Shown here: in pieces, positions 3,127 through 52,885 of the stretch
Position numbering within the stretch: position 1 is the stretch's first letter
How the letters are laid out: every line of letters starts with the position of its first letter
Origin: a virus
Strand: one strand, 5' to 3'
IMG/VR virus record: IMGVR_UViG_3300011114_000575
Coordinates: 1 to 52,885 of that record
Length of the DNA stretch: 52,885 nucleotides
Made by a program: the position numbers and the translations under genes
The notes under the pieces: generated by a model
Databases searched by the model: none
The model's input: the letters and a program-made list of their open reading frames with translations, nothing else
What the model was told of the DNA's origin: nothing

Positions 3127-3154
3127 GTCGGAAGAAGTGTTGGCTACTTCCGAC
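3127..3154 (-). terminator. Hairpin over the stop of the 500-residue gene
   Basis: GTCGGAAG (3127-3134) and CTTCCGAC (3147-3154) form a perfect 8-base stem with a 12-base loop, spanning the leftward stop at 3144. Read leftward the stem is followed by TTAAGTT. It may act as a partial terminator or an RNA-processing barrier. Confidence 0.4.
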
Positions 3155-4646
3155 GTTCAATCTCCGTCTTCTCCAGACGACCGAGGCCGCTGCCAGCGCC
3201 AGCATCCATGTCCTTGTAGGAGCGATAGACGCGGCCACCAGCCTTGCGGCCCATCGGCCCGGCAGGAGGCATCTGCGGAGGAGGCATCGGCATGCCGCCA
3301 CCCATCGGGGGCATCGGCATCGGTGCAGCCACAGGAGGCATCACAGAGGCCTGACGAGGCATGACAGCCGGGGCGGCACCAGGACCGCCCAGACCGCCGG
3401 GCACGCCAGACTGACCCGCCGCGCCATCCACGGCAGGACGGCCCGCCGAGATGATGATGTTGACGTTCGTCTTGCCCTTGTTGGCGCGACCGCCAGTAGC
3501 GCGGGCCATGCGGCCACCATGCTGCGGACGCTCGCCGCCGATGTCGCCAATCTTGCCACCTTCGGCACGGCCAGAGACATCATCCTCGTAAATCGGCCTA
3601 CGAGTATAGCGCGAGGCGCCATACGCGTTGTCCTTCTTGTCGCGGAAGCTAGAGGCAGCAGCGCCGCTCTTGAACTTGCCGACAACATCCCCCGTATGCC
3701 GATCAATGACATGATACATAGACGGGGACTTGATTTCAGAAGAACCACCTTCGGCCTTGCCCATCCTGCCGCCAGAGCACTTGTGGCACCGGCAGCCGGC
3801 GCCATGGTCGGCCTTGCCGCCGTCCTTGCGCTTGGCAGCCGCACGCTGAAGTTCGCGGAAACGGGCCACATCAGGCTCTTCCGGAGGCCGCGTGACCGAA
3901 GTTTGGCGCGCGGGCACCGGCTCTGTGCGGCCAGCAATCAAACTACCAGGGTCGTTTACTTCACCGCCATCAGCCCGGTTACGCAGAAGCGCGTGGATCA
4001 TCGCGGCTTCACGCTTCTTGATCTTGCGACCGGAGCGATTGGAGCTACCAATGGCCTGATTGACAGCGTCTTCATTGTAACGCGGCCCCATATCAGGCTG
4101 CGGGCGAGGCATGCGACGCGCCGGAGGCATCGGCATGTTCTGTTCGTCAAAGATTTCGCCGCCATCCGCCTTGTGCTTGCGCATGGCCTTGTGGGCGCCT
4201 GCTTCGCCACCATGCTTCTTGCCGGTCAGCGCGGCACCCTTGACCATCTTCCTGACCAGGGCGCGGTCGGCAACAATGTCGTCGTGCTTAGGCGCGCCGC
4301 CATGCTTGTAGCCACCAACATGCGCCGTGCCGCCAGACCGCTCGCGATTGGCTTCCTTGCTGTCGCGGTTGATGTAGTTGTTGGGCGTCAGCGCCTTACC
4401 GCCGGCATTGCGCGGCTTGCGACCGGCGTGCTGATGCGCCTGCTCACCCTCAACGTGCAGCACCTTGCCGCCACGCTTGAAGGCGCGCTTGGAGACGGGG
4501 CGCATGCCAGTCTTGGCGCCGCTGTTCACCATCTCCGGGGGCGTCCACGACGAGGCGTCAACGTGCGCCTTCGGGTCGCCTGCGTCGCCCATACGCTTGG
4601 CCTTCGCCTTCATCGCCGCTCGCGCGGACTTGGCATCCTCAGACAT
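3144..4646 (-). CDS. Basic Gly-Gly-repeat virion-associated protein
   Basis: The product has 500 residues, is strongly basic and is low in hydrophobic core residues. It carries more than ten short basic/acidic Gly-Gly motifs scattered along its length (for example FKRGGK, YKHGGA, KADGGE, RADGGE, RAEGGK, RKAGGR) and a cysteine cluster CRCHKCSGGR (about 285) that could bind zinc. A Pro/Met-rich stretch precedes a conserved-looking C-terminus (VYRSYKDMDAGAGSG). The segment HAGRKPRNAGG is nearly repeated in the 134-residue protein at 50148-50552. The position after the portal suggests a virion or packaging accessory role. Basic character suggests DNA contact, which is inference. The ATG at 4646 has GGAGACT upstream. 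Confidence 0.75.
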   Translation of the reverse strand: MSEDAKSARAAMKAKAKRMGDAGDPKAHVDASSWTPPEMVNSGAKTGMRPVSKRAFKRGGKVLHVEGEQAHQHAGRKPRNAGGKALTPNNYINRDSKEANRERSGGTAHVGGYKHGGAPKHDDIVADRALVRKMVKGAALTGKKHGGEAGAHKAMRKHKADGGEIFDEQNMPMPPARRMPRPQPDMGPRYNEDAVNQAIGSSNRSGRKIKKREAAMIHALLRNRADGGEVNDPGSLIAGRTEPVPARQTSVTRPPEEPDVARFRELQRAAAKRKDGGKADHGAGCRCHKCSGGRMGKAEGGSSEIKSPSMYHVIDRHTGDVVGKFKSGAAASSFRDKKDNAYGASRYTRRPIYEDDVSGRAEGGKIGDIGGERPQHGGRMARATGGRANKGKTNVNIIISAGRPAVDGAAGQSGVPGGLGGPGAAPAVMPRQASVMPPVAAPMPMPPMGGGMPMPPPQMPPAGPMGRKAGGRVYRSYKDMDAGAGSGLGRLEKTEIERRK

Positions 4647-4666
4647 TGGCAGAAGTCTCCATGGAG

Positions 4667-6484
4667 TTACGGGCGTCCCCGTGTGTGCTGACGACCGGGC
4701 AGCGCGGCGTGGCGAGTGAGGGATAAGGCGTGGTCGACAACGGAACCGCCACCCATTGGCAGACCAATTTCTGCCATGGCCTGGGCGAGAGGATGGTTGT
4801 GGGCAGGGTCTTCAATGGCACCGCCGGTAGCAGCATGGCGCATGGCGTTGATAACGTCTTGGTGCGTCGTCTGTTCGTCGCCGACCTTGTCCCAAACAGC
4901 ATGGTGGGTAAGGTGCTGGTAGTATGGCTCCATGCCCTCAGGCGTTTTCAAGCCCATAGCCTCCTGCCGGGCAGCAAGGCGGTCGACAGCTTCACTGCCG
5001 GCGCGTGCGAGGGGTTTCTTGGCCTCTGAGGTAGGATTGCCGGTGTGCAGGACAATCTGACGCGCATCGAGCGTAGGCTGGTCTCCACGTCCAAGTAGAG
5101 ACCCCATAAACCCAGCCTTTGCGCTGCCGATGCCATGAACGCCACCAATAAAATTGCGCCACTCTTCGGGACTGCTTTTGCTCTGCATCGCACGAGCAAC
5201 CATATCAGACACAGCTTTCGCATGCTGAGGAAGGTTTTGGGCTGCCCACGGAAGTGCCTTTGCTTCAGTAGACAGACCAAATACCTTCATGACATTGGCA
5301 GCGTCTGCAATGGATTCGTGGTCGACAATACCCTGCTCGGCGGCGTCAAGATAACGGCGCCCCATAGGAGAATGCAGCCACTCACCAAAAGCCCCTTCAG
5401 GACGAACGCTGCCATTAAAATCATGAGGAATTGGCACGCCCGACGCGCGAGCCTTATCAGCAGACCTAGATTCGCGCTGAATGCTGGATCGAGTGATTGT
5501 ATATGCCTTAATGAGGTCGCGAGGGGTTAAGCCATGCGTTGCGGCCCGACGCGCTGTCTCATCCATGAACTGGCCAAAGTTGACAACATGCGACGGGATT
5601 TCGCGTAAATCCCCAAGCTGTTCCTGCACTTCGCCAAGGGGTCGCCAATCCCATCCAGCCATCTTGCGGCTTTCAGGGTCTTTGTAGGCCTCGCCTCCAT
5701 CCGCACGATGAATGCGACCACCACGGGCGGCAGCATCACTATCACCATAACCACCGCCAAGGGGGCCGGCAGCGGCAGCGGCAGCGGCTGCCATCTCGGC
5801 GGTGCCGCCGGTCGGAGCCCCACCGCCATTAGGGTGCCAACGGTCCCCACTGCCACCCTGGCCTTCCTCAAGAGGATTGTCTGGGAGATTGTAGGAGGAC
5901 GCATTGAACGTCGGCGCGGGGATGGACGGGCCGATGTATTTCGATTCCAGAGGCTTACTTGACCCCGTGTAGGTGGTGGGGCGCGACGCCAGTATAGCCG
6001 CCATAGTGGCCTTGGACGGGGCGAGGTTCAGCGTTTCAGGCGACGGCAGGCCGGTGAAGGCGCCAGCAGCCGGGGCGAAGTTGATGGGGGCGCCAGTGGC
6101 CGAAGCAAAGCCAGCAGGACTGCCACCAAACGCATAGCCGCCACGGTTCATCATCTTGAGGGCGCGGTCGACAACGTTGCCGTGATCCCCCGCCACCCAC
6201 GCATCAGGCGTCTGGTGATAGACGGACATCCAATCATCATGCAGCTTGCTCGGCGCGATGCCATGCTCATGGCTAATGCGCTTCATGATGCCATCAATAG
6301 CCGCATACTGCGTGCGCCCCTTCATGCTTCGCAGTTCATCGCGATGCATCTTCAGGAGGTGTTTTAGTTCTGCAACGGCAGGATTGTGCGGCGTGTGCTT
6401 TGTAATGTTACCACGATTAGGTAAATTCTTGTGGCGAGCAACATGAAGCGCCGCACGGGCGGCTTTCTTGGGATCAGCGGTCAC
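4667..6484 (-). CDS. Portal-adjacent protein with a helix-hairpin-helix-like segment
   Basis: The product has 605 residues. A helical N-terminus (about 1-115) ends in VVDRALKMMNRGGYAFGG. A low-complexity Ala/Gly/Pro linker follows (120-265) with HRADGGE (259-265), then a mainly helical C-terminal half. Residues 447-476 (GGVHGIGSAKAGF then TLDARQ) resemble the hairpin and following Asp of HhH-GPD DNA glycosylases, where Gly-h-Gly-h-Gly binds DNA and the Asp is catalytic. This is a resemblance only. The C-terminus repeats the VVDxAL motif (582-587). Start GTG at 6484 overlaps the portal stop (GTGA) and has GGAGG upstream. It may be an ejected or internal virion protein. The function is unproven. 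Confidence 0.75.
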   Translation of the reverse strand: MTADPKKAARAALHVARHKNLPNRGNITKHTPHNPAVAELKHLLKMHRDELRSMKGRTQYAAIDGIMKRISHEHGIAPSKLHDDWMSVYHQTPDAWVAGDHGNVVDRALKMMNRGGYAFGGSPAGFASATGAPINFAPAAGAFTGLPSPETLNLAPSKATMAAILASRPTTYTGSSKPLESKYIGPSIPAPTFNASSYNLPDNPLEEGQGGSGDRWHPNGGGAPTGGTAEMAAAAAAAAGPLGGGYGDSDAAARGGRIHRADGGEAYKDPESRKMAGWDWRPLGEVQEQLGDLREIPSHVVNFGQFMDETARRAATHGLTPRDLIKAYTITRSSIQRESRSADKARASGVPIPHDFNGSVRPEGAFGEWLHSPMGRRYLDAAEQGIVDHESIADAANVMKVFGLSTEAKALPWAAQNLPQHAKAVSDMVARAMQSKSSPEEWRNFIGGVHGIGSAKAGFMGSLLGRGDQPTLDARQIVLHTGNPTSEAKKPLARAGSEAVDRLAARQEAMGLKTPEGMEPYYQHLTHHAVWDKVGDEQTTHQDVINAMRHAATGGAIEDPAHNHPLAQAMAEIGLPMGGGSVVDHALSLTRHAALPGRQHTRGRP

Positions 6485-8820
6485 TGCACGCCTCCGGGAG
6501 CGCGAGGGTTGCCCAGGCCGGGCAGAGGGCGTCGCCTGGAGGCGTCCAAGGCAGCCTGACGGCTCTGCACGCTCTCAAACGACGGACGCACCAGAGGCTC
6601 TACCAGAGCGGCGCTGTAGGGATGCACAGCGAGGTTCTGGGCGAGGTCCACAAGCTGAATGCGTTCCTTGGCCAGCTTGTCGTCCAACTGCGCGTCAACC
6701 TGCTCACCGGCAATACTGGCGTCGGTCTCGACCTTGTGCGCATCAAGCTGCGCCTTGGCCACGCCCAGGTGCGCGTCGGTCGACAGCTTCTGCATACCAA
6801 TCTGGATATCGGCCTGCGCCTTCTGCGCCTTCGTCTGGGCGTCCAGCATGCGCGCCTGCGCCGTGATGTCCTTCGCCTTGGCGTCGGCCTGCATCTTCAT
6901 CATCTCAGGCGGCGGCGCACCCTGCGCATTCGGCGGCGCCATGAACTGCGACGGATTGCTCCAGCCAATCGCCTGAAGGGCGGCAGTATCAACGGCAATC
7001 GGATCGTAGAGGCCGGGCTGGGCGGCCTGTAGCTGCTTCAGGGCCATGATCTTCATGAGGCGCTGCGCATGCGACGCGGTGTTGGGATCGGCCTGGGGCG
7101 TCAACTCATAGTTATTAAGGGCTTGCAGGAAGACCTGCTCATCCCACGGGTAAGCCGGCGCCCTGTTCCTCTGCCAAAAGCTCTCAGGATTGTCGCGGAA
7201 GCACTTAATAAGTAACCGGAACTCCTGCGCCTGAGCGGCATGCATGCGCTTGTGAACGCTATTGAGAATCTTGGCGGCCTGCTCGATCATGGCCAACGTC
7301 GTGCCGACTGGCGCGTCAGCGCGACCCTCGCCCGTCTGCATCTCGGACACGCCGCCAATGCGCTGCCCGGTCTGGGCGATGTTTTCAACCAACGACATCA
7401 GCGCAGGAGACGGGTCTTTGTAGGGCAGTGGCATGATCGCCTGATTGATCGGCAACCCGCCCGTCTTGACCAACGCGCCACCACCCGGCGGCACGCGGAA
7501 GATGTTGGTATTTTGGCGGGCGCCAACATCCGACATCAGGAAGCCGGGGAAGTTGGCATACATGCCGGCATCGAGCAGTTCACGCCACGCGGCTGTGATG
7601 GCGTTCGTCGTGTTGCCCAAAATATGCAGCAAACCAATGTCATAAAAACCAAAGCCGGGAATGAACGTATACTTGACGAACGTTTCCTTGGCTTCGGGCA
7701 GTTCGCTTTGGTCTTTGTCGTAATTCCTAGTGATAGAAAGAATGTTCTTGGACGATACATCAATCGTCACCCGATAAGGAATCTCAAGACCGCTCTGCTT
7801 GCCCTTGTGCTTGTGTTCAAAGCCCAGGATATCGAGTTCGCAGTAGCACTCGTAGATTTCGCGGTCACGGTCCTCTGGGCGATGGGCATCAACGCTAATG
7901 CCTTCAACGTCCTTCTTTTCTTGATCGAGCGAGTTTGTCTTTGCGGCGCTGGGCGTGCTGAGGTTGATATCCTGATAGACGCCCAGAATTTGCAGGCGCT
8001 TCACTGTGCTAGGCTTCATGTATACGCGATGCGTAATACGCTTGGCGTTTGCAAGATCAGTGGCGGTATTGTTTACGATCAAATCGTTGGCGTCTACGGT
8101 TTCGCTCACGGGGCGATTGCGTAGAGGGCAGTAATACACCTTCTTAAACTGCGTCCCTCCAAAGCCCAGCATCAACAGCATGCGGTCAGTGTCGGGGTAG
8201 TATTCGCTGGCAGTCACGGTCAGGTAGTGGTTGAGGTCACGCTCAAGGGCGTCGGCCAGACGGTCCTCAGCGGCCGTGGCGTCGTTGTCGTCGTTCCTGA
8301 TCTTGACCGGCCCGTCAGTCGGAAGGAGTTCGGCGCGGGCATTGGCCTGGAAGCGCAGGACCGCCTCCAGCAGCAGAGGGTGACGAACGCGGCTGATGCC
8401 TTCGACCGGCGCGCCGTCTGCGCTGCCGCCAAGGCCAGGAATGTCCAGCTTCAGGCCGAGCAGGCGCACGCCATTGGCGCGATCCTCAACCCAGTCCTTG
8501 CGGCTGTCGATGTCGGCCTCGATGCTGCGGACGAGGTCGTCGGCAATGCGCGACAACTCTACAGCCTCAATGTCGTCAACGAGGTTGTCGAACCATCCAC
8601 GCGGACCACGCGATGCCGCGCTCTCCAGAGGGCTGCCGTCGATGGAGACGGTGACGCTGCCGTCGCCATGCTCAATCGACAAGATGTTGCCTTTGGCGTC
8701 GGTCATGCCCTGGTCTGGCGCGTCCTCCGCGACCTCCACCATGATGTCGCCCTCCAGCAACTCAGCTTGAGGCGGGGCGGGCTGCCGCAGAGACGGGCTC
8801 AAACCAGGGACGAGCGGCAT
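6481..8820 (-). CDS. Portal protein, P22 gp1-like
   Basis: The product has 779 residues, close to the 725 of the P22 portal. After a variable N-terminus, the core (about 110-560) has the pattern of P22-type portals: the HPLLLEAVLRFQANARAEL helix, aromatic DxxRMLLMLGFGGTQFKKVYY, and a long helical wing and stem. The C-terminus is an extended Ala/Gln/Lys-rich coiled coil (about 630-740), matching the barrel of P22-like portals. Twelve copies would form the DNA entry vertex and bind terminase. It is placed correctly downstream of the large terminase. ATG at 8820 follows AAGGG. The overlap with the next gene indicates coupled translation. Confidence 0.9.
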   Translation of the reverse strand: MPLVPGLSPSLRQPAPPQAELLEGDIMVEVAEDAPDQGMTDAKGNILSIEHGDGSVTVSIDGSPLESAASRGPRGWFDNLVDDIEAVELSRIADDLVRSIEADIDSRKDWVEDRANGVRLLGLKLDIPGLGGSADGAPVEGISRVRHPLLLEAVLRFQANARAELLPTDGPVKIRNDDNDATAAEDRLADALERDLNHYLTVTASEYYPDTDRMLLMLGFGGTQFKKVYYCPLRNRPVSETVDANDLIVNNTATDLANAKRITHRVYMKPSTVKRLQILGVYQDINLSTPSAAKTNSLDQEKKDVEGISVDAHRPEDRDREIYECYCELDILGFEHKHKGKQSGLEIPYRVTIDVSSKNILSITRNYDKDQSELPEAKETFVKYTFIPGFGFYDIGLLHILGNTTNAITAAWRELLDAGMYANFPGFLMSDVGARQNTNIFRVPPGGGALVKTGGLPINQAIMPLPYKDPSPALMSLVENIAQTGQRIGGVSEMQTGEGRADAPVGTTLAMIEQAAKILNSVHKRMHAAQAQEFRLLIKCFRDNPESFWQRNRAPAYPWDEQVFLQALNNYELTPQADPNTASHAQRLMKIMALKQLQAAQPGLYDPIAVDTAALQAIGWSNPSQFMAPPNAQGAPPPEMMKMQADAKAKDITAQARMLDAQTKAQKAQADIQIGMQKLSTDAHLGVAKAQLDAHKVETDASIAGEQVDAQLDDKLAKERIQLVDLAQNLAVHPYSAALVEPLVRPSFESVQSRQAALDASRRRPLPGLGNPRAPGGVQ

Positions 8821-31154: not shown

Positions 31155-33038
31155 TCAAATAGCTTCGTTGGCGATGGAGAGGGCTTTGACAATGTGTTCG
31201 TCAGGCGCCTGCAACAGCGGCTCCGTCGTCTTGCTCTCCTGCTTCTTAGCCGCCTCTGCGGCGCGAACCAAGGATGCAGCACGGCCAGAGTGGTCGATGC
31301 CTACGCGCCCACCTTCCCGCCGCTCGATGCGGCCTCCGGTGGATTCCTCCTGATCTTGCCGCGCCTTTTCTGTTTGATACAGCCCTTGTCCAACAGGACG
31401 GGAAGTGGCGGCTTCAGTTAGGGCACCAACAGGCCGATTTAGCATCCCTTTCCCATAATGAGCATATCCCATCAGGCGCGGCGATGAGGCAAGCGCGCCA
31501 CCAAGAATATGAGGAATGGCAGAAGGTTGGAATAGCGCCAGTCCTGCCGCCCCAGGATACCCAATCATTGCTTGCGTCCCTTGTGCAAACCAAGGGCTAA
31601 CTGCGGCACCAGAAAGCATTGCAGGAAGTGTTTTTCCAGCGTTGGTTTCAGATAGAGTTTGTAAAAGACTTTGCTTAACTCCAGGCTGATCATTTGCCTT
31701 CATGAGTTTTTTAACAATTGCATCTGCTCCGGCTTTATCTTTCAAACTCAAAGAACGTTGATAATTGTTTAGCAAATTCCTCCAATTTTGCCAATATTCC
31801 ATGGCAGAGGCGTATTCTGGCGCATGAGAAGAAATTGTATTTTTGATTGAATTATATACATTTCCAATCTTGCCTTCAAATCTAGTTCCCTGGGCACTGT
31901 GAAGAACGTCACCAATTGACTGTTTTACATTGTCTAAGTCAATGACAGTCCTTGCCATAGGGTGTTGGTTTCTAAGAGATTCAAATATTTGGTTATTAAT
32001 GTCTTGAACCATGCTTTTAGCTTGGCTAAATCTGGATGTAGTCCCATGTAGATTGACAAAATCATTTAGCTCTTTTAGCGCCCCACCGGTTGTATGTTTT
32101 AAGAGTAAAGAATTAAGTTGAGATATTTGTGGCTCAGTCAATTGCCCTGAATAATTCATAACGCTCTGAAGGATTTGCGAGCCTGTATGATCAAGCTGCA
32201 CAATATTATCAAGATTAAGCTGGGCAGGAGATTGACCAGCTTCAGCCATGCTGTTTAAATAAGCCTGATTTGCGGCGCCTTTTTTTTCTTCTAGCGCGCG
32301 CATTGCCGTATTGGCAATCTCAGAATGTTCGCTTGGGTCGCGTGCCATTTTAAAAAAGGCAGCTTTTTGTTCTGGAGTTCCAGTGGAGGCTATTTCTTGA
32401 ATGTTTTTAAAATTAGATGATGGGACGCCAGAGAGGCCGGCTTGAGTTTTCCCTGCAATTAAGGCGCCTCCTTTGATTGGAAGTTTTGCCACAGCAAGAG
32501 CGGATTGCACAGGGTCCATAACAGTCGCGGCACGCCCTGCCATGCGGGCGACTTGACCCGTTAAGCCGGCCGCCTTGGCGCCAGCACTCGCGCCCAAAGA
32601 AAGCGGCAAAGAGACATCAATGCCAATGCTGAAAGGGTCTTTAGCCAGGGCGCGCTTAAAGCCTCCCATGGTGCCGTATTGCTCGGCGTAGTGCTGGCCT
32701 AAAGCGTTGATCAATTGCTCATTCTGAGCTTTTTCCTCTGGGTTTTGCTTTACGCCAAGGGCGCCAGCAGCCTTAGAGTAGGCGCCAGTGCCCATTTGCT
32801 TAAGTGCACCAAGCGTGTCTTCGTAGTTGTAAATTGCAGAACCTACGTCTTTAAGGACACCACCAAAGCTGGAAGGAAGGTTAGATGCGCCCTCCATGAG
32901 GACTTCTGGCCACGACTTTTGTGCGTATTGTTCACTCTCTGCCTGCCTTTCCGTTGGCGTCGGGCGAGGAGAAACAAGATCAGAGGGCGGCTGCTGATCT
33001 TCAGGCGGAGACACTAAGTCAGAAGGAGGCTTGTCCAT
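31155..33038 (-). CDS. Internal virion/ejection protein
   Basis: The product has 627 residues. The N-terminus has a short repeat (PPSDLVSP twice in 1-25). The middle is mostly amphipathic helix with two Gly/Ala-rich hydrophobic stretches (about 135-200 and 470-530) that could insert into membrane, as ejection proteins of podoviruses do. The C-terminus holds TGGRIERREGGRVG and then an ordered helix (RAASLVRAAEAAKKQ ... PDEHIVKALSIANEAI) that looks conserved. It follows the 1605-residue protein directly, a normal arrangement for proteins ejected with the DNA. ATG at 33038. Function by position and composition only. Confidence 0.65.
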   Translation of the reverse strand: MDKPPSDLVSPPEDQQPPSDLVSPRPTPTERQAESEQYAQKSWPEVLMEGASNLPSSFGGVLKDVGSAIYNYEDTLGALKQMGTGAYSKAAGALGVKQNPEEKAQNEQLINALGQHYAEQYGTMGGFKRALAKDPFSIGIDVSLPLSLGASAGAKAAGLTGQVARMAGRAATVMDPVQSALAVAKLPIKGGALIAGKTQAGLSGVPSSNFKNIQEIASTGTPEQKAAFFKMARDPSEHSEIANTAMRALEEKKGAANQAYLNSMAEAGQSPAQLNLDNIVQLDHTGSQILQSVMNYSGQLTEPQISQLNSLLLKHTTGGALKELNDFVNLHGTTSRFSQAKSMVQDINNQIFESLRNQHPMARTVIDLDNVKQSIGDVLHSAQGTRFEGKIGNVYNSIKNTISSHAPEYASAMEYWQNWRNLLNNYQRSLSLKDKAGADAIVKKLMKANDQPGVKQSLLQTLSETNAGKTLPAMLSGAAVSPWFAQGTQAMIGYPGAAGLALFQPSAIPHILGGALASSPRLMGYAHYGKGMLNRPVGALTEAATSRPVGQGLYQTEKARQDQEESTGGRIERREGGRVGIDHSGRAASLVRAAEAAKKQESKTTEPLLQAPDEHIVKALSIANEAI

Positions 33039-33049
33039 TTTTCAAACCT

Positions 33050-36000
33050 TTAAACAGGAGGTTCAATTCTTTTTCCGTTATGCCACCACTGCCCTGTAGA
33101 TGGGCTATACTGCGCCCCCGCAGGCGCCCAAGAAGGCCTAGAAGGAATTGCACTTCTCTCAGACGGCGATTGAGAAGAATACATGGTATTATACAAAGGC
33201 TGACTCATGTCAAAAGCATTAACGCTGTCAAGCGCTGTATAGTAATCCCCTCTAGGAGAATTTTTAACAACATCAAACTTCTCAATTTCATGCTGGGCGC
33301 GCTTTTGAATTACGTTTTTAAGCAGGAAAAGCGCACCTTCTCTGGTCATCGCAGAACCTGGAGAGGTTCCTTGAGCCGCATTCCATTGCGCAAGAAGTTG
33401 CCTTCCTGCTGGAGTTTCAATTTTCCCCAACTCAGCCGTCATCATATTTCTCATTTTATCTATGACGTCAACTTTTGCTGGATCAGTAAATGCATCACTA
33501 ATCCAAGAGGGGAAACCAAATTGCCTCAAAGTGCCAGCTAAATATTTTAACCTTTCAGCTTGCGGCCCCATAGAAGGAGATGTGCCAGGGGATTGGATGG
33601 TGTTAATCATCAACTCAGCTTGCTGCTGGAGCGCCCTAGCTGCCCTTGCTTCATCTGCGGAAGAAGAATACAACTCACGGAACATTTTCCCCTGCTCAAG
33701 TTTTGCAGCGCCTTGAAGCTGCAACGCATTAGAAAGTTCCGCCCTAACGTCATTAGCTTCTTGTTCTATTGCAGCTTTTGCTTCTGGAGTTATTGCTGTT
33801 CTGGTCCTGGCAGTTAGAGTTTGTAATTTTTGATTGGCAGCAGCAACATCGTCATCAAATTGAGTTTTGATGGTGGGGGCTGCGGGGGGTTGAGGCTGCG
33901 CTTGTGGAGTTCCGCTAGTCCTGCGACCTGCCGCTGCACCACTTTCAAAAGAAGCCATTGCATCCGCAAGTTTACCAACAACTTGAGGATTCTTGAAATC
34001 AATCTGGTCTGTTGGCTTTATGCCAAGTTGAGAGGAAACGTTGGAAATGTAATTTGCAACGCTACGCTGATCCTCTTCATATTTTGGATGACCGGGCTTG
34101 TATTCAGAAGCCCACCGAGAGACAATCTGTTGAGGCGTCACAAGGCCATTGTTTGCATAATTCTGCAAAAGAGAAATTTGCGCATTTCGACCGTCTTCAG
34201 GTGTCTTAAAAACAGCAAAGCCATTTTCAGAGCCAGCGTATCCAGGCATATTTTTGGCAAATTGCCCGTCCTTGATCGCTCCTTGATTGTTTGTCCTGAC
34301 AGTCAGAGGAGTGCCAGCCCCACTTGGGGAGGCAGCAGGCCCTTGGGGAGCAGTAGGTGCGCCACCAAGGATAGTGGCTGCACCCTTGTCTGCGCCGAAC
34401 ATAGAAAGGGCGTTTTGATAAATTGAGTTCATCTGCTGGGGAGTGTAAGTTCTCCCGTCAAGCAGGCTTGTGTAGCCAACAATGTTATTGTTTTCATCAG
34501 TTTGAGGCTTGTAATTACCCCTAATAAATTCCATGGTTTTATTTGTAGCTTCGGCCATCCTAATTTGCATGGCTTGCGGCATAAGGGCGGTTTCAGTCGC
34601 GATCTTTTCACGCTGAACCATTTGATTCTGCACGTTCCCGTAGGCGCCAGCGGCACCGGCGAGGCCCTGAGCAAAGGCCGACCCCAGGTAGCGGCTAGGC
34701 GACGCCGCCATGGTGCCGACGCCAGTCAGAAGGGGGACAAGCCAGTCCTGGTTACGAGAGAACCAACTTCCCTTGGACCCTTCATCCGGCTTTTCAGGAG
34801 CGGGCGAAGGCGTGGGAACGGCCCCAAGGCCGGCTTGCTGGACGTTCTGGCTTACGGGGGCAGAAGCCACAACGTTAGGTGTTTCAGACTGGGCAAGAGA
34901 CGCTCCTGGTGGCAGGGCGCGCGCTTCAACCTGTTGTGCAGGCGCAACCCCGCCACCAGGGCGAGAGATTACAGCAGGTGCGCTTGCGGGCGCTGCGAGA
35001 GGCTGTTCGCTAGCCTGCTGAGGCGCATAAGGTTCTGTCCCGGATGCTAGGCCAGGGGCAGGCCCTTCCGTCTGTCTAGCCTGCGCAGCCGGCGCATAAC
35101 GACCGCCAGGATTTGTCATCACATTATTTAGAAAATCTTGGTTGGCAATTCCAAGGGCGCGCTGGGTATCGGTGCCGGAACCCTGCGAAGAAGGCGAAGG
35201 GGTCGCCCCAAGGCCAGTTTGCGGGGGAATGATTGCACTAGCTGCGCTACGGACGGCGGGGGATTGGTCTGCTCCCGCCCTTTCATCAGGTTGCAAATCT
35301 CGAATTTGCTGCGGCGCATAAAGACCGCCAGGATTGGCCATCACATTATTTAGAAAACCTTGGTTGGCAATCCCAAGCGCGCGCTGAGTGTCAACGTGCA
35401 GCCCGTCTGCATTGGCCCCTTGCGCCGAAACCGGAGGCGCAGAACGCGCACCAGCATCACGGCCAGAGTTTACATTAAATCTATCAAGATTATGAAATAC
35501 ACTAGATGGGTCAGAAAGATTAGAGTTGTAGTTGCCGTAAAAATTATCAATTTGAGGATCATCAGTGTCTACTCCAGGCAGACCACCATAAGCAAAGTGA
35601 CCACGATGTGCAGCACCTTCGGTAGCGCGCCCGTAGTCAACAGTCTTATATCCTCCAGCAAGACCAACAGCCTCAGGATGCTTGTGCTCAACGTCCTGCG
35701 CGATTAAACCAATCTGTGTTTCGGGATGACCCTTGTAGTTGTAGCGATAAACCGGCTGACCATCAAAGGTCTTGCCAATCTGATGGATGTTTTCCTTCAG
35801 ACGCTTGTCAGAAAAAAGAGAAGCAAGACCTGCTGCGCCCTCAAAAAAAGTCTTGCCTGCACCAACAAGGCCGGCGACCTTCGTAAGGTCGTTTCCAAGA
35901 CCACCAGACTGCCCAGAACCAGCCTGCTCAGGCTTAGGGGGATTGATAATGGGCTTTTGATTGGGAATGTTTAGGGAGAAAGTTTCCTTGTCAGGGTCGT

Positions 36001-37867
36001 TGTAAGGATTGACATCCTCATTGTTCACGCGACCATCTGTGGCGTAACCCCTGATTGCGCCGCCATGCGCTGCACCAAAAATATTCCTAACGGATGCCAG
36101 ATACCCTTTGCCTGTGTCCCAATCGCCGCCAGCGCCAAGAATCCCCTTGCTGGCTGCGGTCTTATCCGTAGCGGCGGAACCCACAAGAGCGGACTGGGCT
36201 GCTCCGGCCAATCCCTTGGCGGCCTCTACCTGCTTGGCAAAATTAATAACTTCTTTGTCACGGGGGTGCTGATCCGGCGGAGGAGAAGCAACAGCCAAAC
36301 GCCCAGACGGCATGCTGCTTTGCGTCGGGATGTTCAGACCCTGCCCCTGACCACCAAGGCCAGCGCCAATTTGCCCCTTGCGGGCATTAGCCAAAATATG
36401 GGCAAAATAGTCTGGCATGCCACCTTCGGCAAAACCTTCGCCAGCGCGCTCCGGCACAACGCCACCACCCATAGACGCGCCACCATAGGCGAAGTGCCCA
36501 CGATGCGCAGCGTCCTCAGTGGCGCGGTCGTAGTCCACAGTCTTATAGCCGCCAGCAACGCCAACAGCCTCAGGGTGCTTGCGCTCAACGTCCTGCGCAA
36601 TCAACCCAATCTGAGTGCCACGCTGCCCCTTGTAGTTGTAGCGGTAGATCGGCTGCCCATCGAAGGTCTCACCAACCTGATGAACATTCTCCTTGAGGCG
36701 CTTGTCAGAGAAGAACGAAGCAGGCTGCGTCGTTGTTGTCGTAGAGCCCGACTGGGAGCCAGTCCCCAGGGCAATGTTGGCAAGGAACTGCGCCACCTGG
36801 AATGGGTAGCCCTGCTGCTGGAGGAACTGATTATAGAGGGCAGTGTTCTGTGCCTGCTGCGTCTGCTGCTCCTGCGTTCCGGCAGCCAACTGCGCCGAGG
36901 CACCCTGCAAGGCGGCGCCCTGTGCGCCAGTGCCGAGGGCAGCAAGGTTCTGAGCCGTCTTCTCGCCCATGCCGTAGACGCCCTGGCCCAGGCCAGCAAT
37001 CTGCTGCCCCGCCGCCAAGCCCTGCCCGAACTGCTGCTGCCCCAGGCCGGCTAGCTGACCGGCCGTGGCGGCGCCCTGACCAAACTGCTGCTGGCCAATG
37101 CCCATCATCTGACCGGCGCCAGCCTGCAAGGCGGCACGATTGGCCTGCTGCGCCCCAAGGCCAACGCCCTGCTGCTGCTGCGCCGTCCCAAGCGCCTGCC
37201 CGTAGCCGGTATTGTAGAGGTTCGCGAGGGTCTGCTGATTGGCGAGGTTCTGCTTATAGGCAAGGTTGGCCGCCGCGACGCCAGACCGATCACCACCAAA
37301 TGCACCAGACTTAATAGCGTCGCTGGTAAGCTGCGACTGCTGCTCCTGGTTCTGCTGGTTCATCGCCTGCATGGTCGCGCCGACCACGTTGTTGAGGTAT
37401 GGCGACATATACTGGTTGATTGCAGCCTGCCCCAGGTAGGTTGGGTTCACGGCCTGCGTGCCTGCTGCGGCTAGGCCAGTGGCGGCCTGATTGTAGGGCT
37501 GTGCGGCGGCTTGAGCGCCCTGTAGCGCCCCATACGACTCCTGGCCAAGCTGCGCACCCAGGCCATAGGCGCCGCCATACACGTCCATCGCGGCGCCGTA
37601 GTAGGGGGTCGCGGCCTGCTGGCCTTGCAGGAGGGATTCGGTAGCGCCCGTGAAGTAGGGTTGGGCCTGCCCGGCGGCCTGATTGACGTTGGCAATCGCA
37701 GCGTTCTGCGTGCTGGTCATCGGCGCCACAAACTGCCCCTGGTAGGGCTGGTAGGGCGTCTGCGCGACATCGGAGGCATACTTATTGACGGCGTTGTATC
37801 TCGCCATAACCTCCGGCGGGATTTGAACGCTGGAGGTCGAAGTCGAGGTCTTGCCGCCGCCGCTCAT
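33050..37867 (-). CDS. Giant internal virion protein with two S74-like modules and a lysozyme-like domain
   Basis: The product has 1605 residues, the largest protein. Residues 1-380 are Gln/Ala/Gly-rich and helical with repeated GIGQQQFGQG-type units (about 230-300). Two S74-like modules follow (384-446 and 684-745: FSDKRLKENxHQxG, IYRYNYKG, TQIGLIAQDVE), each ending in HRGHFAYGG. A 31-residue repeat (DTQRALGIANQ, 826-852 and 900-926) comes next. Residues about 1189-1312 resemble a lysozyme-like domain of phage ejection proteins (NNQGAIKDGQFA, GFAVFKTPEDGR, QIVSRWASEY). The end (1330-1605) is helical. It probably acts on peptidoglycan during DNA ejection. Confidence 0.75.
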   Translation of the reverse strand: MSGGGKTSTSTSSVQIPPEVMARYNAVNKYASDVAQTPYQPYQGQFVAPMTSTQNAAIANVNQAAGQAQPYFTGATESLLQGQQAATPYYGAAMDVYGGAYGLGAQLGQESYGALQGAQAAAQPYNQAATGLAAAGTQAVNPTYLGQAAINQYMSPYLNNVVGATMQAMNQQNQEQQSQLTSDAIKSGAFGGDRSGVAAANLAYKQNLANQQTLANLYNTGYGQALGTAQQQQGVGLGAQQANRAALQAGAGQMMGIGQQQFGQGAATAGQLAGLGQQQFGQGLAAGQQIAGLGQGVYGMGEKTAQNLAALGTGAQGAALQGASAQLAAGTQEQQTQQAQNTALYNQFLQQQGYPFQVAQFLANIALGTGSQSGSTTTTTQPASFFSDKRLKENVHQVGETFDGQPIYRYNYKGQRGTQIGLIAQDVERKHPEAVGVAGGYKTVDYDRATEDAAHRGHFAYGGASMGGGVVPERAGEGFAEGGMPDYFAHILANARKGQIGAGLGGQGQGLNIPTQSSMPSGRLAVASPPPDQHPRDKEVINFAKQVEAAKGLAGAAQSALVGSAATDKTAASKGILGAGGDWDTGKGYLASVRNIFGAAHGGAIRGYATDGRVNNEDVNPYNDPDKETFSLNIPNQKPIINPPKPEQAGSGQSGGLGNDLTKVAGLVGAGKTFFEGAAGLASLFSDKRLKENIHQIGKTFDGQPVYRYNYKGHPETQIGLIAQDVEHKHPEAVGLAGGYKTVDYGRATEGAAHRGHFAYGGLPGVDTDDPQIDNFYGNYNSNLSDPSSVFHNLDRFNVNSGRDAGARSAPPVSAQGANADGLHVDTQRALGIANQGFLNNVMANPGGLYAPQQIRDLQPDERAGADQSPAVRSAASAIIPPQTGLGATPSPSSQGSGTDTQRALGIANQDFLNNVMTNPGGRYAPAAQARQTEGPAPGLASGTEPYAPQQASEQPLAAPASAPAVISRPGGGVAPAQQVEARALPPGASLAQSETPNVVASAPVSQNVQQAGLGAVPTPSPAPEKPDEGSKGSWFSRNQDWLVPLLTGVGTMAASPSRYLGSAFAQGLAGAAGAYGNVQNQMVQREKIATETALMPQAMQIRMAEATNKTMEFIRGNYKPQTDENNNIVGYTSLLDGRTYTPQQMNSIYQNALSMFGADKGAATILGGAPTAPQGPAASPSGAGTPLTVRTNNQGAIKDGQFAKNMPGYAGSENGFAVFKTPEDGRNAQISLLQNYANNGLVTPQQIVSRWASEYKPGHPKYEEDQRSVANYISNVSSQLGIKPTDQIDFKNPQVVGKLADAMASFESGAAAGRRTSGTPQAQPQPPAAPTIKTQFDDDVAAANQKLQTLTARTRTAITPEAKAAIEQEANDVRAELSNALQLQGAAKLEQGKMFRELYSSSADEARAARALQQQAELMINTIQSPGTSPSMGPQAERLKYLAGTLRQFGFPSWISDAFTDPAKVDVIDKMRNMMTAELGKIETPAGRQLLAQWNAAQGTSPGSAMTREGALFLLKNVIQKRAQHEIEKFDVVKNSPRGDYYTALDSVNAFDMSQPLYNTMYSSQSPSERSAIPSRPSWAPAGAQYSPSTGQWWHNGKRIEPPV

Positions 37868-38355
37868 CTAGGATGATCCTTCAACAACTTCGTCGTCGCC
37901 CCGTAGAGGAAGAAAGCTCCCGTGGGCTCTCCGAACTTCCTCTTATAAAGCCTGACCTTGGCTTCTGTCCGATTGTTGCTCAATACACCGATAATCAACG
38001 GAATGCCAAGGCTATCAGATACCTCTTTCGCAAAGTCGCAAAGCTTCCCGGCCCGGCCACCCTTGGCGCTCCTGTATTCCGGGTGAACGAAGATCGCCTT
38101 CTCTTCAATGACATCCTGGTCAGAATACCACATCTTGCCGGTTCGCAGGAGAATGGCGGCTTCAAGCTTTTGCCCAGGCTCGCCAATAACGCCCATGATG
38201 CCATGGTCGTTGTTTAACGCTGGCCAGATATCACCAAGAAGTTTCGTCGGGTTGGGGTCAACGAATCCATTTTCATCAGTAGCCATCATGGCTAATTCCA
38301 TAACCGCGTCAACGTCGGCAGGAGTTCCAATACGAATCTTGATGTCTTCAGACAT
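37864..38355 (-). CDS. GNAT-family acetyltransferase
   Basis: The product has 163 residues, the usual length of GNAT enzymes. The acetyl-CoA motif A is AIFVHPEYRSAKGGRAGKLC (87-106), with the R/K-x-x-G-x-G/A loop in AKGGRAG. The C-terminal YKRKFGEPTGAFFLYG is motif B-like. Phages carry such enzymes in the virion gene cluster. The substrate (a virion protein, a host factor or a small molecule) is unknown. The stop overlaps the start of the 1605-residue gene (ATGA), so the two are coupled. ATG at 38355. Confidence 0.75.
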   Translation of the reverse strand: MSEDIKIRIGTPADVDAVMELAMMATDENGFVDPNPTKLLGDIWPALNNDHGIMGVIGEPGQKLEAAILLRTGKMWYSDQDVIEEKAIFVHPEYRSAKGGRAGKLCDFAKEVSDSLGIPLIIGVLSNNRTEAKVRLYKRKFGEPTGAFFLYGATTKLLKDHPR

Positions 38356-38362
38356 AAATGCA

Positions 38363-38992
38363 CTAATCCTTCTTTGGGCCAGGAAGATTCTTGAGGGTTT
38401 TTACGGTTTTTGCCCTCATTTGCTTGACAAACTCATCAAGGATTTTGTGGCCATCGTCAAGCGAGCCACCGCCAAGATGCTCAACAGACTTGGGGTCGAT
38501 CACATACTCGCCACCGGCAGCGACAATCGGAACGGTGCCTGTAGAGCCGCCTGCGGCCTTGTGGGGCATAGGCGCGCCGTAGGGTAGGCCACGACCACCA
38601 TAGGGCTTGCCGGCGCCCATGAAGGGCGTAGAGAAGATGTTCTGGGCCACCTTGAACCCCGCCATCGTGTTCCCCTCGCCCATGGCACTGATGATGTCGG
38701 CGGGGATGACGTAGGAGCCGGAGGCAACGTGCATCGGCAGGTGGTCCGTGCGACCGGCCACAGGGCTGTGGATAGGGCCGGCGTGAACCTTGGTTGTCGT
38801 GCCGCCTTCAAAGGCAGGAGGCGCGTCTGGCATCGGAGGTTCCGGCGGGGAGAAGGGGCCGCCACCGGCCTTAGTCTTCCTGGCCGTATTCAGCGCCGCC
38901 GCAATCGCCTGATCCTGCGGGTGGCCAGCGTGGACCATCTCCCGGATATTGGTGCTGATCGTCTTTTGGCTTTTGCCGTGGATCAAAGGCAT
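38363..38992 (-). CDS. Tail/virion protein of unknown family
   Basis: The product has 209 residues. [19 protein letters not shown] ending in [17 protein letters not shown] (2-38) is a pattern found at the start of several small phage virion proteins. The middle (about 85-120, [20 protein letters not shown]) and a Gly-rich stretch ([29 protein letters not shown]) are typical of a set of Gly-Gly-containing structural proteins here. The end is a helix ([18 protein letters not shown]). ATG at 38992 follows GAGGT. The function is unknown. Confidence 0.7.
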
Positions 38993-39000
38993 CACTTACC

Positions 39001-43619: not shown

Positions 43620-43985
43620 TTACTCTACAACCTCAAGAGTCCTATCATTGCTTACCGCAACGGTAGCGCGAACTGACCTATTTTGAATGATACAGCCATT
43701 GCTGGCCGTGCGATTCATAGACGTGTTGTCGCCATGGATTAGGAAACCATCACGCCCAAAAGTATCAGTCCCCTTCATGGGCGTAAGACGCATTGTCATA
43801 GGGCCTGCCTTGGGATGCGTGAACGCAACACCAATGCTATAAAGCCCACGAGGAATAGGTCCAACATCACGAATAGCTTGAGCCTCAGGGTTATTCACCC
43901 CATTGCCACAACCAGCATACCCAGAGCCCACGACCTTGTCGTTATAAGACAGATTGCCTGTCTTTTGCGAATATTTCCACGTCAC
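43620..43985 (-). CDS. Tlde1-like (DUF2778) lysis enzyme
   Basis: The product has 121 residues. The pattern is that of DUF2778/Tlde1, an L,D-transpeptidase-like fold: WKYSQKTGNL at the start, GPIPRGLYSI (42-51), FLIHGDN (81-87) and ASNGCIIQ (94-101). His 84 and Cys 98 are the likely catalytic pair. Bacterial Tlde1 effectors cleave peptidoglycan tetrapeptides. A phage copy directly after the holin would serve as the endolysin. No signal peptide is seen, so it needs the holin to cross the membrane. GTG at 43985 overlaps the holin stop. Confidence 0.75.
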   Translation of the reverse strand: MTWKYSQKTGNLSYNDKVVGSGYAGCGNGVNNPEAQAIRDVGPIPRGLYSIGVAFTHPKAGPMTMRLTPMKGTDTFGRDGFLIHGDNTSMNRTASNGCIIQNRSVRATVAVSNDRTLEVVE

Positions 43986-48068: not shown

Positions 48069-49031
48069 TCAATACTCTACCACAATTACAATTCCAGGCG
48101 CACCTGCGCCGCCAGCGCCACCGACGAAACCACTAGTGCTGTTTCCGGCGCCACCGCCGCCACCACCGGCTCCGTAGTTGCCGCCAGCGCCGCCTGCACC
48201 GCCGTTGCCAGTAGAACCTGCACCACCACCACCACCACCCGATGCTGGTGCGTTTGCAAAAATATTTATAGGGGATTGTCCAGAACCTGCGCTACCATTA
48301 GCATTAATGGCGCCGCCCGAAGCGTTATTAAATGGACCATTTATCAACGTGCCACCGCCACCTGCGCCTGCCTGAGCAGTGCCTGCATTAAACCCACCTC
48401 CACTACCGCCGCCAGTAGGAGAATTTTGATTGTTTCCGCCACTAAAAGCAGTCCCGGTTGAACTACCACCCCCACCAGCACTGCCTGAATACAATGCGCC
48501 AGCGCCGCCTGCAGAGCCAAATCCACCTCCCGCTCCAAAAGCAGAGCCCAATCCACCAGCGGCATTTGTGCCAAAACCTCCCTGTAGGCTGTTTTGTGAA
48601 GCCGAACCACCACCACCCGAAGCCACCCCTAATGCTCCGGGAGCGCCGCCGCCTCCACCACCCCCATATACTTTGGAAGCAAACGAACTGACGCCGCCAA
48701 TACCACCTTGACCGGCAATACTCCCCCCGGTTGGAATTACCCCAGACTGTCCAGCAGCACCGCCAGCCCCAACAATAATAGTTTCTGTCGCAGAAAGACT
48801 TGCAGCATTAAACTGATATGAAAAGTAACCGGCACCACCACCGCCGCCGCCGCCTGACCCGCTGCCTGCGGCATACGTGCCCCCAAATCCCCCACCACCG
48901 CCGCCACCCACAACAAGAACCTGAACCGTCTTTGTGTTCGGGTTCTTTGTCCAGGTGCTAGAGCCGGTGGTCGAAAACGTCGTGGTAATAGGCGCAATCG
49001 CGCCGGAGGTTGCTACTGCACGAACAGCCAT
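48069..49031 (-). CDS. Gly-rich fibre or adhesin
   Basis: The product has 320 residues. After a short beta-rich start (STWTKNPNTKTVQVLVV) most of the protein is glycine-rich, with polyglycine runs of 6-8 residues separated by Ala/Ser/Asn, ending in VVVEY. Such proteins are used as receptor-binding tips. A similar Gly-rich tip ends the tail fibre at 29644-31146. ATG at 49031 overlaps the stop of the preceding gene. The polyglycine repeats make the gene liable to slippage. Confidence 0.7.
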   Translation of the reverse strand: MAVRAVATSGAIAPITTTFSTTGSSTWTKNPNTKTVQVLVVGGGGGGGFGGTYAAGSGSGGGGGGGAGYFSYQFNAASLSATETIIVGAGGAAGQSGVIPTGGSIAGQGGIGGVSSFASKVYGGGGGGGAPGALGVASGGGGSASQNSLQGGFGTNAAGGLGSAFGAGGGFGSAGGAGALYSGSAGGGGSSTGTAFSGGNNQNSPTGGGSGGGFNAGTAQAGAGGGGTLINGPFNNASGGAINANGSAGSGQSPINIFANAPASGGGGGGAGSTGNGGAGGAGGNYGAGGGGGGAGNSTSGFVGGAGGAGAPGIVIVVEY

Positions 49032-50147: not shown

Positions 50148-50552
50148 TTAGTCGATGTCCATGTCCTTGTGCCCGTGCGGCAGAGTGCCCTTGTGGGCGC
50201 TGCTCAGCGGGGAGGCATCAGAACCAGACTTGGCGCGACCGCCAGCCTTGCGGGGCTTGCGACCGGCATGATGCTGCGCGGCAGCGCCATGGACGGCGCC
50301 AACGTGCTTCACATGGCCCATGTGGTGGTGCATGACGTGACCGCCATGCTTCCGCTTGGTGCGACCGCCATGTTTCTTGGCCTTAGCCTCACCCGAAACG
50401 TTGCTCTCGTTCGTGTAGTCCATGATGGGGTGATCGAGGTCTTGCTTAAACTCAGCAACACCCTTCATATTCTCGCCGGCAGGGCCGCCTTCAGCAAAGT
50501 GACCCTTGTGCGCGGCGTGCTTGCCGTGATGATGCGCCTTATGACCCTTCAT
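50148..50552 (-). CDS. His/Lys/Gly-Gly-rich virion protein
   Basis: The product has 134 residues, rich in His (about one in six) and Lys, with Gly-Gly motifs (FAEGGPAGEN, KKHGGR, RKHGGH, RKAGGR). HAGRKPRKAGG is almost identical to HAGRKPRNAGG of the 500-residue protein at 3144-4646. A histidine-rich composition suggests metal or nucleic-acid binding, which is inference. GAGGAG precedes the ATG at 50552. It lies two genes downstream of the major capsid gene. Confidence 0.7.
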   Translation of the reverse strand: MKGHKAHHHGKHAAHKGHFAEGGPAGENMKGVAEFKQDLDHPIMDYTNESNVSGEAKAKKHGGRTKRKHGGHVMHHHMGHVKHVGAVHGAAAQHHAGRKPRKAGGRAKSGSDASPLSSAHKGTLPHGHKDMDID

Positions 50553-51775: not shown

Positions 51776-52690
51776 TTACGAAGTGGGGAACGACCCGAAG
51801 ATCGAACGCCAATTGTAGTAACCGAACGAGTAACGCTCGTAACCCTTCACAAGCAGATTGTCAGTGACAAAATCCACCTGCATGTCGGTCTCAAACTTGA
51901 CTCGCTCCATATACGACAAACCATCAATGTTCGTCAGGAGGAACCAAGCAAAAGCCGACGTGAGGAAGTCGTTGGTCATGTAGCCTTCGGGAAGGCCACC
52001 GGCCGTCGACACAATCGCGTTGACGTCGTTGTCAGCCGTGCCGGGGCGCAGTTCCGTCTTCGTCAGACGAATAGCAACCGGCTCAAGCTGCGGCGGGACA
52101 ATGAGCTTGCGAGCGCGCGCAAACACCTTCAGGCCAGCCTGATCGCGGAAGTTGGTTCGCACCGAGATCATGCCGTTCAGCAGGGTGGCCTCGTTGAGGT
52201 CAACCTGGATGGTCGGGGTGTTGGCAACGGTGCCACCGTCAATCGGGTGCGCAGTGGAGCACAGGGCCACGCCGTCACCGCCAACCGACGCATTGTAGGT
52301 CGTCGCGGTATTCAGCAGGTTGGCGCCGTAGATTTCCTTAGTCTGCTGGAAGGACTCGATCAGACCAAGGTTCGACGGGTGAAACTGCGTCTTGTAGAGG
52401 TTGTCATCAATCGCCTTGCGAGTGATGGCATACCCAAGAGCAATTTCAGTGTGTTCCTGGTTGTAGACAAAACGCTCACCAGCATTATTGTCAAACGCAG
52501 TCTGACCACCTTCGGTCTTAAGCTGCGCCAGACCCAGGTAGCGCATCTCAGCGGTGCGCTCCAGAGCCATCTTCGACTCGTGCTTGGTGAAAATCTTATC
52601 ATACTGAGACGGGATCATCTCATACTTGCCCTCGACGCCACGAAGGCCGGGGAGCAAGAGGTCCTTGATAGCCGAAAGATTAACAGCCAT
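51776..52690 (-). CDS. Major capsid protein
   Basis: The product has 304 residues, a usual size for an HK97-fold coat protein. The helical start (LSAIKDLLLPGLRGVEGKY), YSFGYYNWRSIFGSF end and the spacing of domains resemble Mu gpT-type coat proteins. It lies after the scaffold and two head genes (across the sequence junction), with a strong GGAGGG before the ATG at 52690. The absence of a prohead protease gene agrees with no N-terminal cleavage. The co-chaperonin encoded upstream may help it fold. The assignment rests on size, position and pattern. Confidence 0.8.
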   Translation of the reverse strand: MAVNLSAIKDLLLPGLRGVEGKYEMIPSQYDKIFTKHESKMALERTAEMRYLGLAQLKTEGGQTAFDNNAGERFVYNQEHTEIALGYAITRKAIDDNLYKTQFHPSNLGLIESFQQTKEIYGANLLNTATTYNASVGGDGVALCSTAHPIDGGTVANTPTIQVDLNEATLLNGMISVRTNFRDQAGLKVFARARKLIVPPQLEPVAIRLTKTELRPGTADNDVNAIVSTAGGLPEGYMTNDFLTSAFAWFLLTNIDGLSYMERVKFETDMQVDFVTDNLLVKGYERYSFGYYNWRSIFGSFPTS

Positions 52691-52885
52691 TGTTCAGCCC
52701 TCCGATCACGAAATGCCAGTCGGGCCAGCGCCATTAGAGCGCCAAACCTCGTTGTTAAAGCCGACGATCACCTGCGGGAAGTTCGTGCTGGGATCGGTGC
52801 CGTTCGCGCCGGGCGGGGAGAAGTCGTAATCAACGATGACAAACGGCGAAGTTACCGCCGTCGCAACAGCGTCGAGATACGCGCC
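52678..52885. repeat. Terminal redundancy, right copy
   Basis: Repeats bases 1-208 with A at 52759 against G at 82. It includes the first residues of the major capsid gene and the end of the 218-residue head gene, whose complete copy is at 29-685. Confidence 0.95.
52706..52885 (-). CDS. C-terminal part of the 218-residue head protein (redundant copy, cut by the window end)
   Basis: The last 59 codons and stop of the gene at 29-685, in frame, truncated by the window end. It differs by one codon (TTT Phe in place of CTT Leu). It is not a second gene but the same one seen twice because of the terminal redundancy. Confidence 0.9.
   Translation of the reverse strand, partial: GAYLDAVATAVTSPFVIVDYDFSPPGANGTDPSTNFPQVIVGFNNEVWRSNGAGPTGIS

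What the first reader, a model, noticed from the sequence alone, without database searches (positions are those of the whole stretch)
3144..6484. Gly-Gly motif shared by six virion-region proteins
Short motifs of a basic or acidic residue, Ala or other, then Gly-Gly and a charged residue (KADGGE, RADGGE, KHGGR, RAEGGK, FAEGGP, FAYGGL, RKAGGR, TGGRIERREGG) occur many times in the 500- and 605-residue proteins here, and in the proteins at 50148, 33050, 31155 and 38363. Outside these motifs the proteins differ. One stretch (HAGRKPRxAGG) is shared by two proteins encoded far apart. Such a distributed motif suggests a common partner: DNA packed in the head, a capsid inner surface, or a maturation enzyme cutting after Gly-Gly. 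I know of no named function for it.
Basis: partly seen in the sequence, partly recalled or inferred. Interest (0 to 1): 0.7.

Follow-up and report, generated by a model that had tools for sequence, protein, structure and literature searches.

The report
Gly-Gly junctions in phage cargo proteins
A short amino-acid signal built around two glycines marks the joints between building blocks in the proteins this phage probably packs with its DNA and injects into bacteria; it is found almost only in those proteins, and it may be where they are cut, held or hinged.

Summary
The motif is [K/R/F/Y]-[A/K]-x-G-G-x-[V/I/T/A], often doubled with an exact 8-residue period (GG-R-[IVTA]-x-[KRY]-[AK]-x-GG). In 11 large relative contigs it occurs 187 times in six predicted internal or ejected protein classes (24 expected) and at chance level everywhere else (28 versus 23). 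Doublets: 53 versus 0. The gene next to p500, between it and the portal gene, is a hypervariable slot. In relatives it encodes "polyvalent" proteins with ADP-ribosyltransferase, inorganic pyrophosphatase, M15 peptidase and GNAT domains. There the motif sits between domains, never inside them. Homology blocks break at it (73 of 140 ends, 16 expected), and the N-termini of stand-alone versions map onto it (60 of 65, 18 expected). The basic 500-residue protein is a string of small modules separated by K-K/A-x-GG.

So this is a module-junction signal of probable packaged, injected proteins. Whether it is cut (as in adenovirus or ASFV polyproteins), docked to a common partner, or only a hinge is not settled. 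No candidate protease was found. I found no description of such a signal. Virion location and cleavage are inferred, not shown.

The parts
3144..4646 (-). p500: basic 500-aa protein, a string of small modules separated by K-K/A-x-GG; 10 strict motifs and 2 doublets
   Evidence: homologues
4667..6484 (-). p605: occupant of the hypervariable polyvalent-protein slot, between p500 and the portal gene; N- and C-terminal AL-helix elements, YAFGG, doublet GGRIHRADGG directly before the conserved ~300-aa domain
5690..5722 (-). doublet junction GGRIHRADGG(E) in p605
4395..4430 (-). HAGRKPRNAGGK in p500
50235..50270 (-). HAGRKPRKAGGR in p134
6481..8820 (-). portal protein (SU10_portal PF23899; phrog_1216), next to the slot
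31155..33038 (-). p627: C-terminal module with doublet GGRIERREGG (31308-31337) and helix ending ALSIANEAI; in relatives the same module ends unrelated upstream proteins
33050..37867 (-). p1605: probable ejection/lytic virion protein with two Peptidase_S74 domains, each followed about 27 aa later by FAYGG
38363..38995 (-). p210: phrog_2423-like N-terminal helical module, then GG linkers, then two related small modules ([10 protein letters not shown] / [10 protein letters not shown])
50148..50552 (-). p134: small Lys/His/Arg-rich protein; doublet GGRTKRKHGG (50340-50369) and the HAGRKPR module shared with p500

Best explanation
The motif is a module-junction signal in the proteins this phage group probably packs in the virion and injects with its DNA. 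Each functional module (enzyme domain or small basic or helical module) carries a joint made of a short helix (consensus near V-x-x-A-[LM]-x-[ILV]-[AT]-[RK]) and one or two copies of [K/R/F/Y]-[A/K]-x-G-G-x-[V/I/T/A]. Modules are gained, lost and swapped at these joints. Shown: the sequence, its near exclusivity to this protein set, its position between domains, and its match to the ends of stand-alone versions. Inferred: that the proteins are in the virion, and that a dedicated partner reads the joint. My preferred mechanism, held at about 0.35, is that an unidentified protease cuts at or next to GG, in the maturing head or after injection, and so separates the modules of these polyproteins; docking of each module to a common virion partner is nearly as likely. 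The confidence below is for the junction-signal role, not for cutting.
For: Specificity: 187 motifs and 53 doublets in six internal classes versus 28 (22.7 expected) and 0 in the other ~630 proteins of 11 relative contigs; same picture in the complete relative MW202675. Common consensus in six families; 8-residue doublets over-represented in five of them (148/29, 18/2.7, 12/1.4, 39/9.4, 24/4.0). Junction position: 0 of 56 strict motifs inside Pfam domains (6.8 expected), and ART domains mostly followed by a motif 11-14 aa after the domain end. L002 carries successive ART-type segments, each bounded by xxGG. Homology-block ends: 73 of 140 within 10 aa of a motif (16.4 expected); among 233 dipeptides the four most enriched at block ends are YA, GY, DG and GG. 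N-termini of stand-alone versions project within 25 aa of a motif in 60 of 65 cases (18.2 expected). Helix element within 30 aa of a motif or protein end in 60 of 65 cases (23 expected). For cutting: one joint per domain rather than one per protein; a free residue before GG; precedent of GG-cleaved polyproteins in adenovirus and ASFV (PMC4246237; PMC10308890); predicted processing of polyvalent proteins (PMC5512222).
Against: No mass-spectrometry or other virion data were available. No protease family was found across the group: S78, C48 and JAB in none of 14 virus records, SprT in 1 (the C48 search had no positive control); no recognisable protease or HExxH protein is shared with MW202675. 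p500 has GG every 5-8 residues in places, so full cutting would shred it, and two slot proteins carry a motif 2-3 residues from the C-terminus. The statistics use related sequences, so the p-values overstate independence. The motif pattern was partly derived from the same families it was counted in, although on other contigs.
Confidence: 0.68

Rival explanations
1. Docking motif, not cut. Each GG joint (alone or as a doublet) binds a groove on one common virion partner, for example the highly conserved capsid inner surface, scaffold or portal, so that cargo is loaded and lined up for ejection.
For: Multivalent arrays in p500 and exact 8-residue doublets; conserved residues on both sides of GG; motif near the extreme C-terminus in two proteins; the capsid protein is 91-100% identical over dozens of contigs while cargo differs greatly.
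Against: One motif per domain junction rather than one per protein; no partner identified; co-folding was not possible with the tools.
Confidence: 0.3
2. Inert hinge and recombination joint. GG gives flexible linkers so that beads-on-a-string proteins can thread the portal and tail, and the repeated sequence promotes module shuffling; nothing reads the motif.
For: Linker position; low-confidence, unstructured linkers in the p210 model; block ends and terminus projections at motifs.
Against: Fixed flanking residues at -3, -2 and +2 in unrelated families and a fixed 8-residue doublet period; non-motif GG is much less enriched at block ends (36 versus 18.7) than strict motif GG (57 versus 8.9).
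Confidence: 0.22
3. DNA-contact motif. Basic GG segments bind packaged DNA, like AT-hook or RGG segments.
For: p500 and p134 are very basic, with RKxGGR and HAGRKPRKxGG.
Against: In the effector, 1605-type and 605-type proteins the same motif is YADGG or FAEGG, with few basic residues.
Confidence: 0.1
4. Composition artefact of glycine-rich proteins.
For: Several phage proteins are Gly-rich, and in the window alone p605 is not significant.
Against: Shuffle tests and controls; the most Gly-rich protein in the window (48069-49031, 36% Gly) has no basic-flanked motif.
Confidence: 0.02

Closest known systems
Polyvalent proteins of phages and conjugative elements (Iyer et al. 2017, PMC5512222)
   Same: Multidomain proteins encoded next to the portal gene, with ART-PolyVal, InPase, GNAT and peptidase domains, highly mosaic and predicted to be packaged and injected.
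   Different: That paper describes no Gly-Gly joint ('glycine', 'GG motif' and 'linker' do not occur) and predicts processing by zincin peptidases, which I did not find here. The joints here also occur in ejection-type and small basic proteins.
Adenovirus core precursors cut by AVP at (M/I/L)XGG|X (PMC4246237)
   Same: GG sites with a free residue before them, in basic and internal virion proteins.
   Different: No adenain-like protease seen; the residue two before GG is Ala or Lys, not Met/Ile/Leu; repeated 8-residue doublets; a phage.
ASFV polyproteins pp220 and pp62 cut at Gly-Gly-X (PMC10308890)
   Same: GG at module borders of internal polyproteins.
   Different: No SUMO-protease-like (C48) enzyme found in 14 virus records (no positive control); the residue after GG is often basic or acidic, not hydrophobic.
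T4/phiKZ-type head protein processing (SPN3US gp245, AXE motif; PMC10052503)
   Same: Internal, ejected proteins sharing one short motif.
   Different: There the motif is A-X-E and removes mostly N-terminal propeptides; here GG, internal and repeated.
Podovirus ejection proteins (PMC8954989)
   Same: p1605 and p627 sit in the ejection-protein position and p1605 matches ejection/virion families; domain swapping is known among such proteins.
   Different: No GG joint is described there ('glycine' does not occur).

Membership tests
Phage polyvalent proteins (Iyer 2017) | Several domains of disparate activity in one polypeptide encoded near virion genes | tested here: met
   Met in relatives: GNAT, M15 and ART in one 739-aa protein, InPase in an 898-aa protein, all between portal and p500. 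The window's own p605 shows the shared ~300-aa domain but no Pfam hit.
Phage polyvalent proteins (Iyer 2017) | Packaged in the virion and injected | not testable with these tools
   No proteomics available; inferred from gene position and families.
GG-cleaved viral polyproteins (adenovirus/ASFV type) | Conserved GG sites at module borders | tested here: met
GG-cleaved viral polyproteins (adenovirus/ASFV type) | A cognate GG-specific (adenain/ULP-type) protease encoded | tested here: inconclusive
   No C48, JAB or S78 hit in 14 virus records; the C48 search rang in no control genome. Many early genes remain unannotated.
GG-cleaved viral polyproteins (adenovirus/ASFV type) | Observed cleavage after GG | not testable with these tools
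   Needs mass spectrometry of virions.
DNA-binding AT-hook/RGG proteins | Basic residues flanking the Gly core in all members | tested here: not met
   YADGG and FAEGG variants in effector and 1605-type proteins.
S78-type (HK97-like) prohead protease systems | S78 prohead protease gene in the head operon | tested here: not met
   PF04586 in none of 14 virus records; positive in 4 control genomes.

The most novel reading that the evidence does not exclude
These phages use a Gly-Gly-specific processing system, unknown in phages as far as I could find, that cuts packaged multi-effector polyproteins into separate injected enzymes, convergent with adenovirus and ASFV core maturation, with a protease of a new family.
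Probability: 0.25. Interest if true: 0.88.

Novelty: new variant of a known kind. Interest (0 to 1): 0.62.

Why it matters
If the joint marks injected cargo, a simple sequence rule (GG doublet plus helix) would flag effector modules in thousands of uncultured phage genomes and show where each module begins and ends, which now needs structure prediction. If it is cut, it would be the first such GG-based virion polyprotein processing that I know of in tailed phages. If it is a docking tag, it would offer a way to ask how tailed phages other than T4 load foreign protein into heads.

Tried and rejected
Composition artefact: rejected by shuffles and whole-contig controls. DNA binding as the general function: rejected because flanks are aromatic or acidic in half the families. 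Recognisable prohead protease in the head operon: none found. SprT-like metalloprotease, seen in MW202675: only 1 of 14 virus records. AlphaFold models: p605 too poor to interpret (mean pLDDT 37.5); p210 partly useful; no fold search was run on such weak models. PDB sequence searches with p210, p500 and p627 gave no convincing relatives. Phage-isolate searches for p500 found only MW202675. Polyvalent proteins of an unrelated Rhizobium phage do not carry the doublet, and that of Sulfitobacter phage phiGT1 does not clearly carry the motif, whereas marine Roseobacter phage CRP-9 and MW202701 carry related FNQGG/MAEGG/FAKGG joints. So the joint is a lineage trait, not general to all polyvalent proteins. 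Genome-contig hits were metagenome-assembled genomes of mixed phyla and do not identify the host. Literature searches for a named GG motif in phage internal proteins found nothing.

Full report
OBSERVATION. The six named genes exist, all on the minus strand, and contain the quoted motifs. In the window alone, shuffle tests are decisive for the 500-aa protein (p500) and the 134-aa protein (p134), weaker for the 627-, 1605- and 210-aa proteins, and not significant for the 605-aa protein. HAGRKPRxAGG is shared by p500 and p134 and is kept in the relatives of both.

WHAT KIND OF PHAGE. The portal matches Pfam SU10_portal and phrog_1216, and the adaptor matches SU10_adaptor. The closest annotated record is the complete uncultured genome MW202675 (portal 67% identical); isolates such as Pelagibacter HTVC027P, Caulobacter GB2A and Roseobacter CRP-902 are distant, around 30%. 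Relatives are very numerous in IMG/VR. The window carries a 208-base direct overlap of its ends at 99.5% identity, so it is probably a complete genome of about 52.7 kb.

THE MOTIF. Over six homologue families, position -3 before GG is enriched in K/R or F/Y, -2 in A or K, -1 is nearly free, and +2 in V/I/T/A. Adjacent GGs have a sharp 8-residue spacing in five unrelated families: 148 versus 29, 18 versus 2.7, 12 versus 1.4, 39 versus 9.4 and 24 versus 4.0. Motif glycines are more conserved than other single glycines in p500 and p134, while the preceding residue is not; the 605 family does not show this.

SPECIFICITY. In MW202675 the strict motif falls only in p210, p627, the slot proteins and p500, plus one helicase hit. 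Over 11 relative contigs and some 700 proteins, six classes hold 187 motifs (24 expected) and 53 doublets; all other proteins hold 28 motifs (23 expected) and no doublet.

ANATOMY. Between portal and p500 lies a slot of 1.0 to 8.1 kb whose content changes even between near relatives. In MW202675 it encodes proteins with GNAT, M15 peptidase, ART-PolyVal and InPase domains, which are classic polyvalent proteins (PMC5512222). Strict motifs are never inside Pfam domains (0 of 56, 6.8 expected), and a motif follows most ART domains by 11-14 residues. Relatives with 95-98% identical portals have 814-, 1304-, 1004- and 1058-aa proteins in place of the 605-aa one; the inserted segments begin and end at GG joints, and L002 has ART-type segments each bounded by xxGG. 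Over all slot proteins, 73 of 140 homology-block ends lie within 10 aa of a motif (16.4 expected), and the four dipeptides most enriched at block ends are YA, GY, DG and GG. Projected N-termini of stand-alone versions lie near a motif in 60 of 65 cases, C-termini in 24 of 42 (18.2 and 10.4 expected). A short helix element lies next to a motif or protein end in 60 of 65 cases. p500 is the same idea at small scale: modules of tens of residues separated by K-K/A-x-GG, some of which also appear in p210 (the GLYANIxAKRxRI module) or p134 (the HAGRKPR module). The p627 C-terminal module ends unrelated upstream proteins in relatives. An AlphaFold model of p210 puts most of its GG sites in low-confidence linkers between small folded modules; the p605 model was too poor to use.

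MECHANISM. What is shown is a conserved junction signal of a defined protein set. That the set is packaged and injected is inferred from gene position, polyvalent domains and ejection-family matches of p1605. Cutting at GG would explain one joint per module, the match to stand-alone termini and the free residue before GG, and has precedents in adenovirus and ASFV. Against it: no candidate protease, dense repeats in p500, and C-terminal motifs in two proteins. Docking explains multivalency and two-sided conservation but not one joint per domain. A plain hinge does not explain the flanks or the 8-residue period. I put cutting at about 0.35, docking 0.3, hinge 0.22 and DNA binding 0.1.

COMPARISON AND NOVELTY. 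The proteins belong to the polyvalent/ejection kind; the GG joint itself is not described in the papers I could search. It is not universal in polyvalent proteins: the Rhizobium phage tested lacks it and Sulfitobacter phage phiGT1 shows no clear case, but marine phage CRP-9 and MW202701 have related joints. Hence 'new variant of a known kind'.

LIMITS. Sequences are related, so counts are not independent trials. The motif pattern was partly learned from the same families. Several relatives are fragments. No experimental data were available.

Noticed in passing
1-208 and 52678-52885: Direct terminal overlap of 208 bases at 99.5% identity: the contig is probably a complete, circularly closed genome although it is classed as linear.
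   Followed up: partly
37864-38355: GNAT acetyltransferase gene conserved between p210 and p1605, with 11 homologues in the 11 relative contigs and one in MW202675; GNAT genes are also annotated in the virion-gene regions of CRP-902 and Alcaligenes phage QDWS535. Role unknown; lysine-rich p500 and p134 could be substrates.
   Followed up: no
33050-37867: Two Peptidase_S74 chaperone domains in one internal-type protein, each followed by the same GGYKTVDY...FAYGG stretch: an internal duplication.
   Followed up: no
43620-43985: Tlde1/L,D-transpeptidase-like domain (PF10908, E 1.5e-13) beside small holin-like genes: possibly a Tlde1-type lysis enzyme.
   Followed up: no
38363-38995: N-terminal ~42 aa of p210 match phrog_2423; the same module is a free-standing 44-aa protein in the head region of phage phiEap-2 and the N-terminus of the AP22 head maturation protease.
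   Followed up: partly
L264:4315-8502 (Roseobacter phage CRP-9 gp54): A marine phage slot protein with FNQGG/MAEGG joints followed by GEYVVPADVV, the same element as in p210.
   Followed up: partly
48069-49031: Tail-region protein with 36% glycine, without the motif.
   Followed up: no
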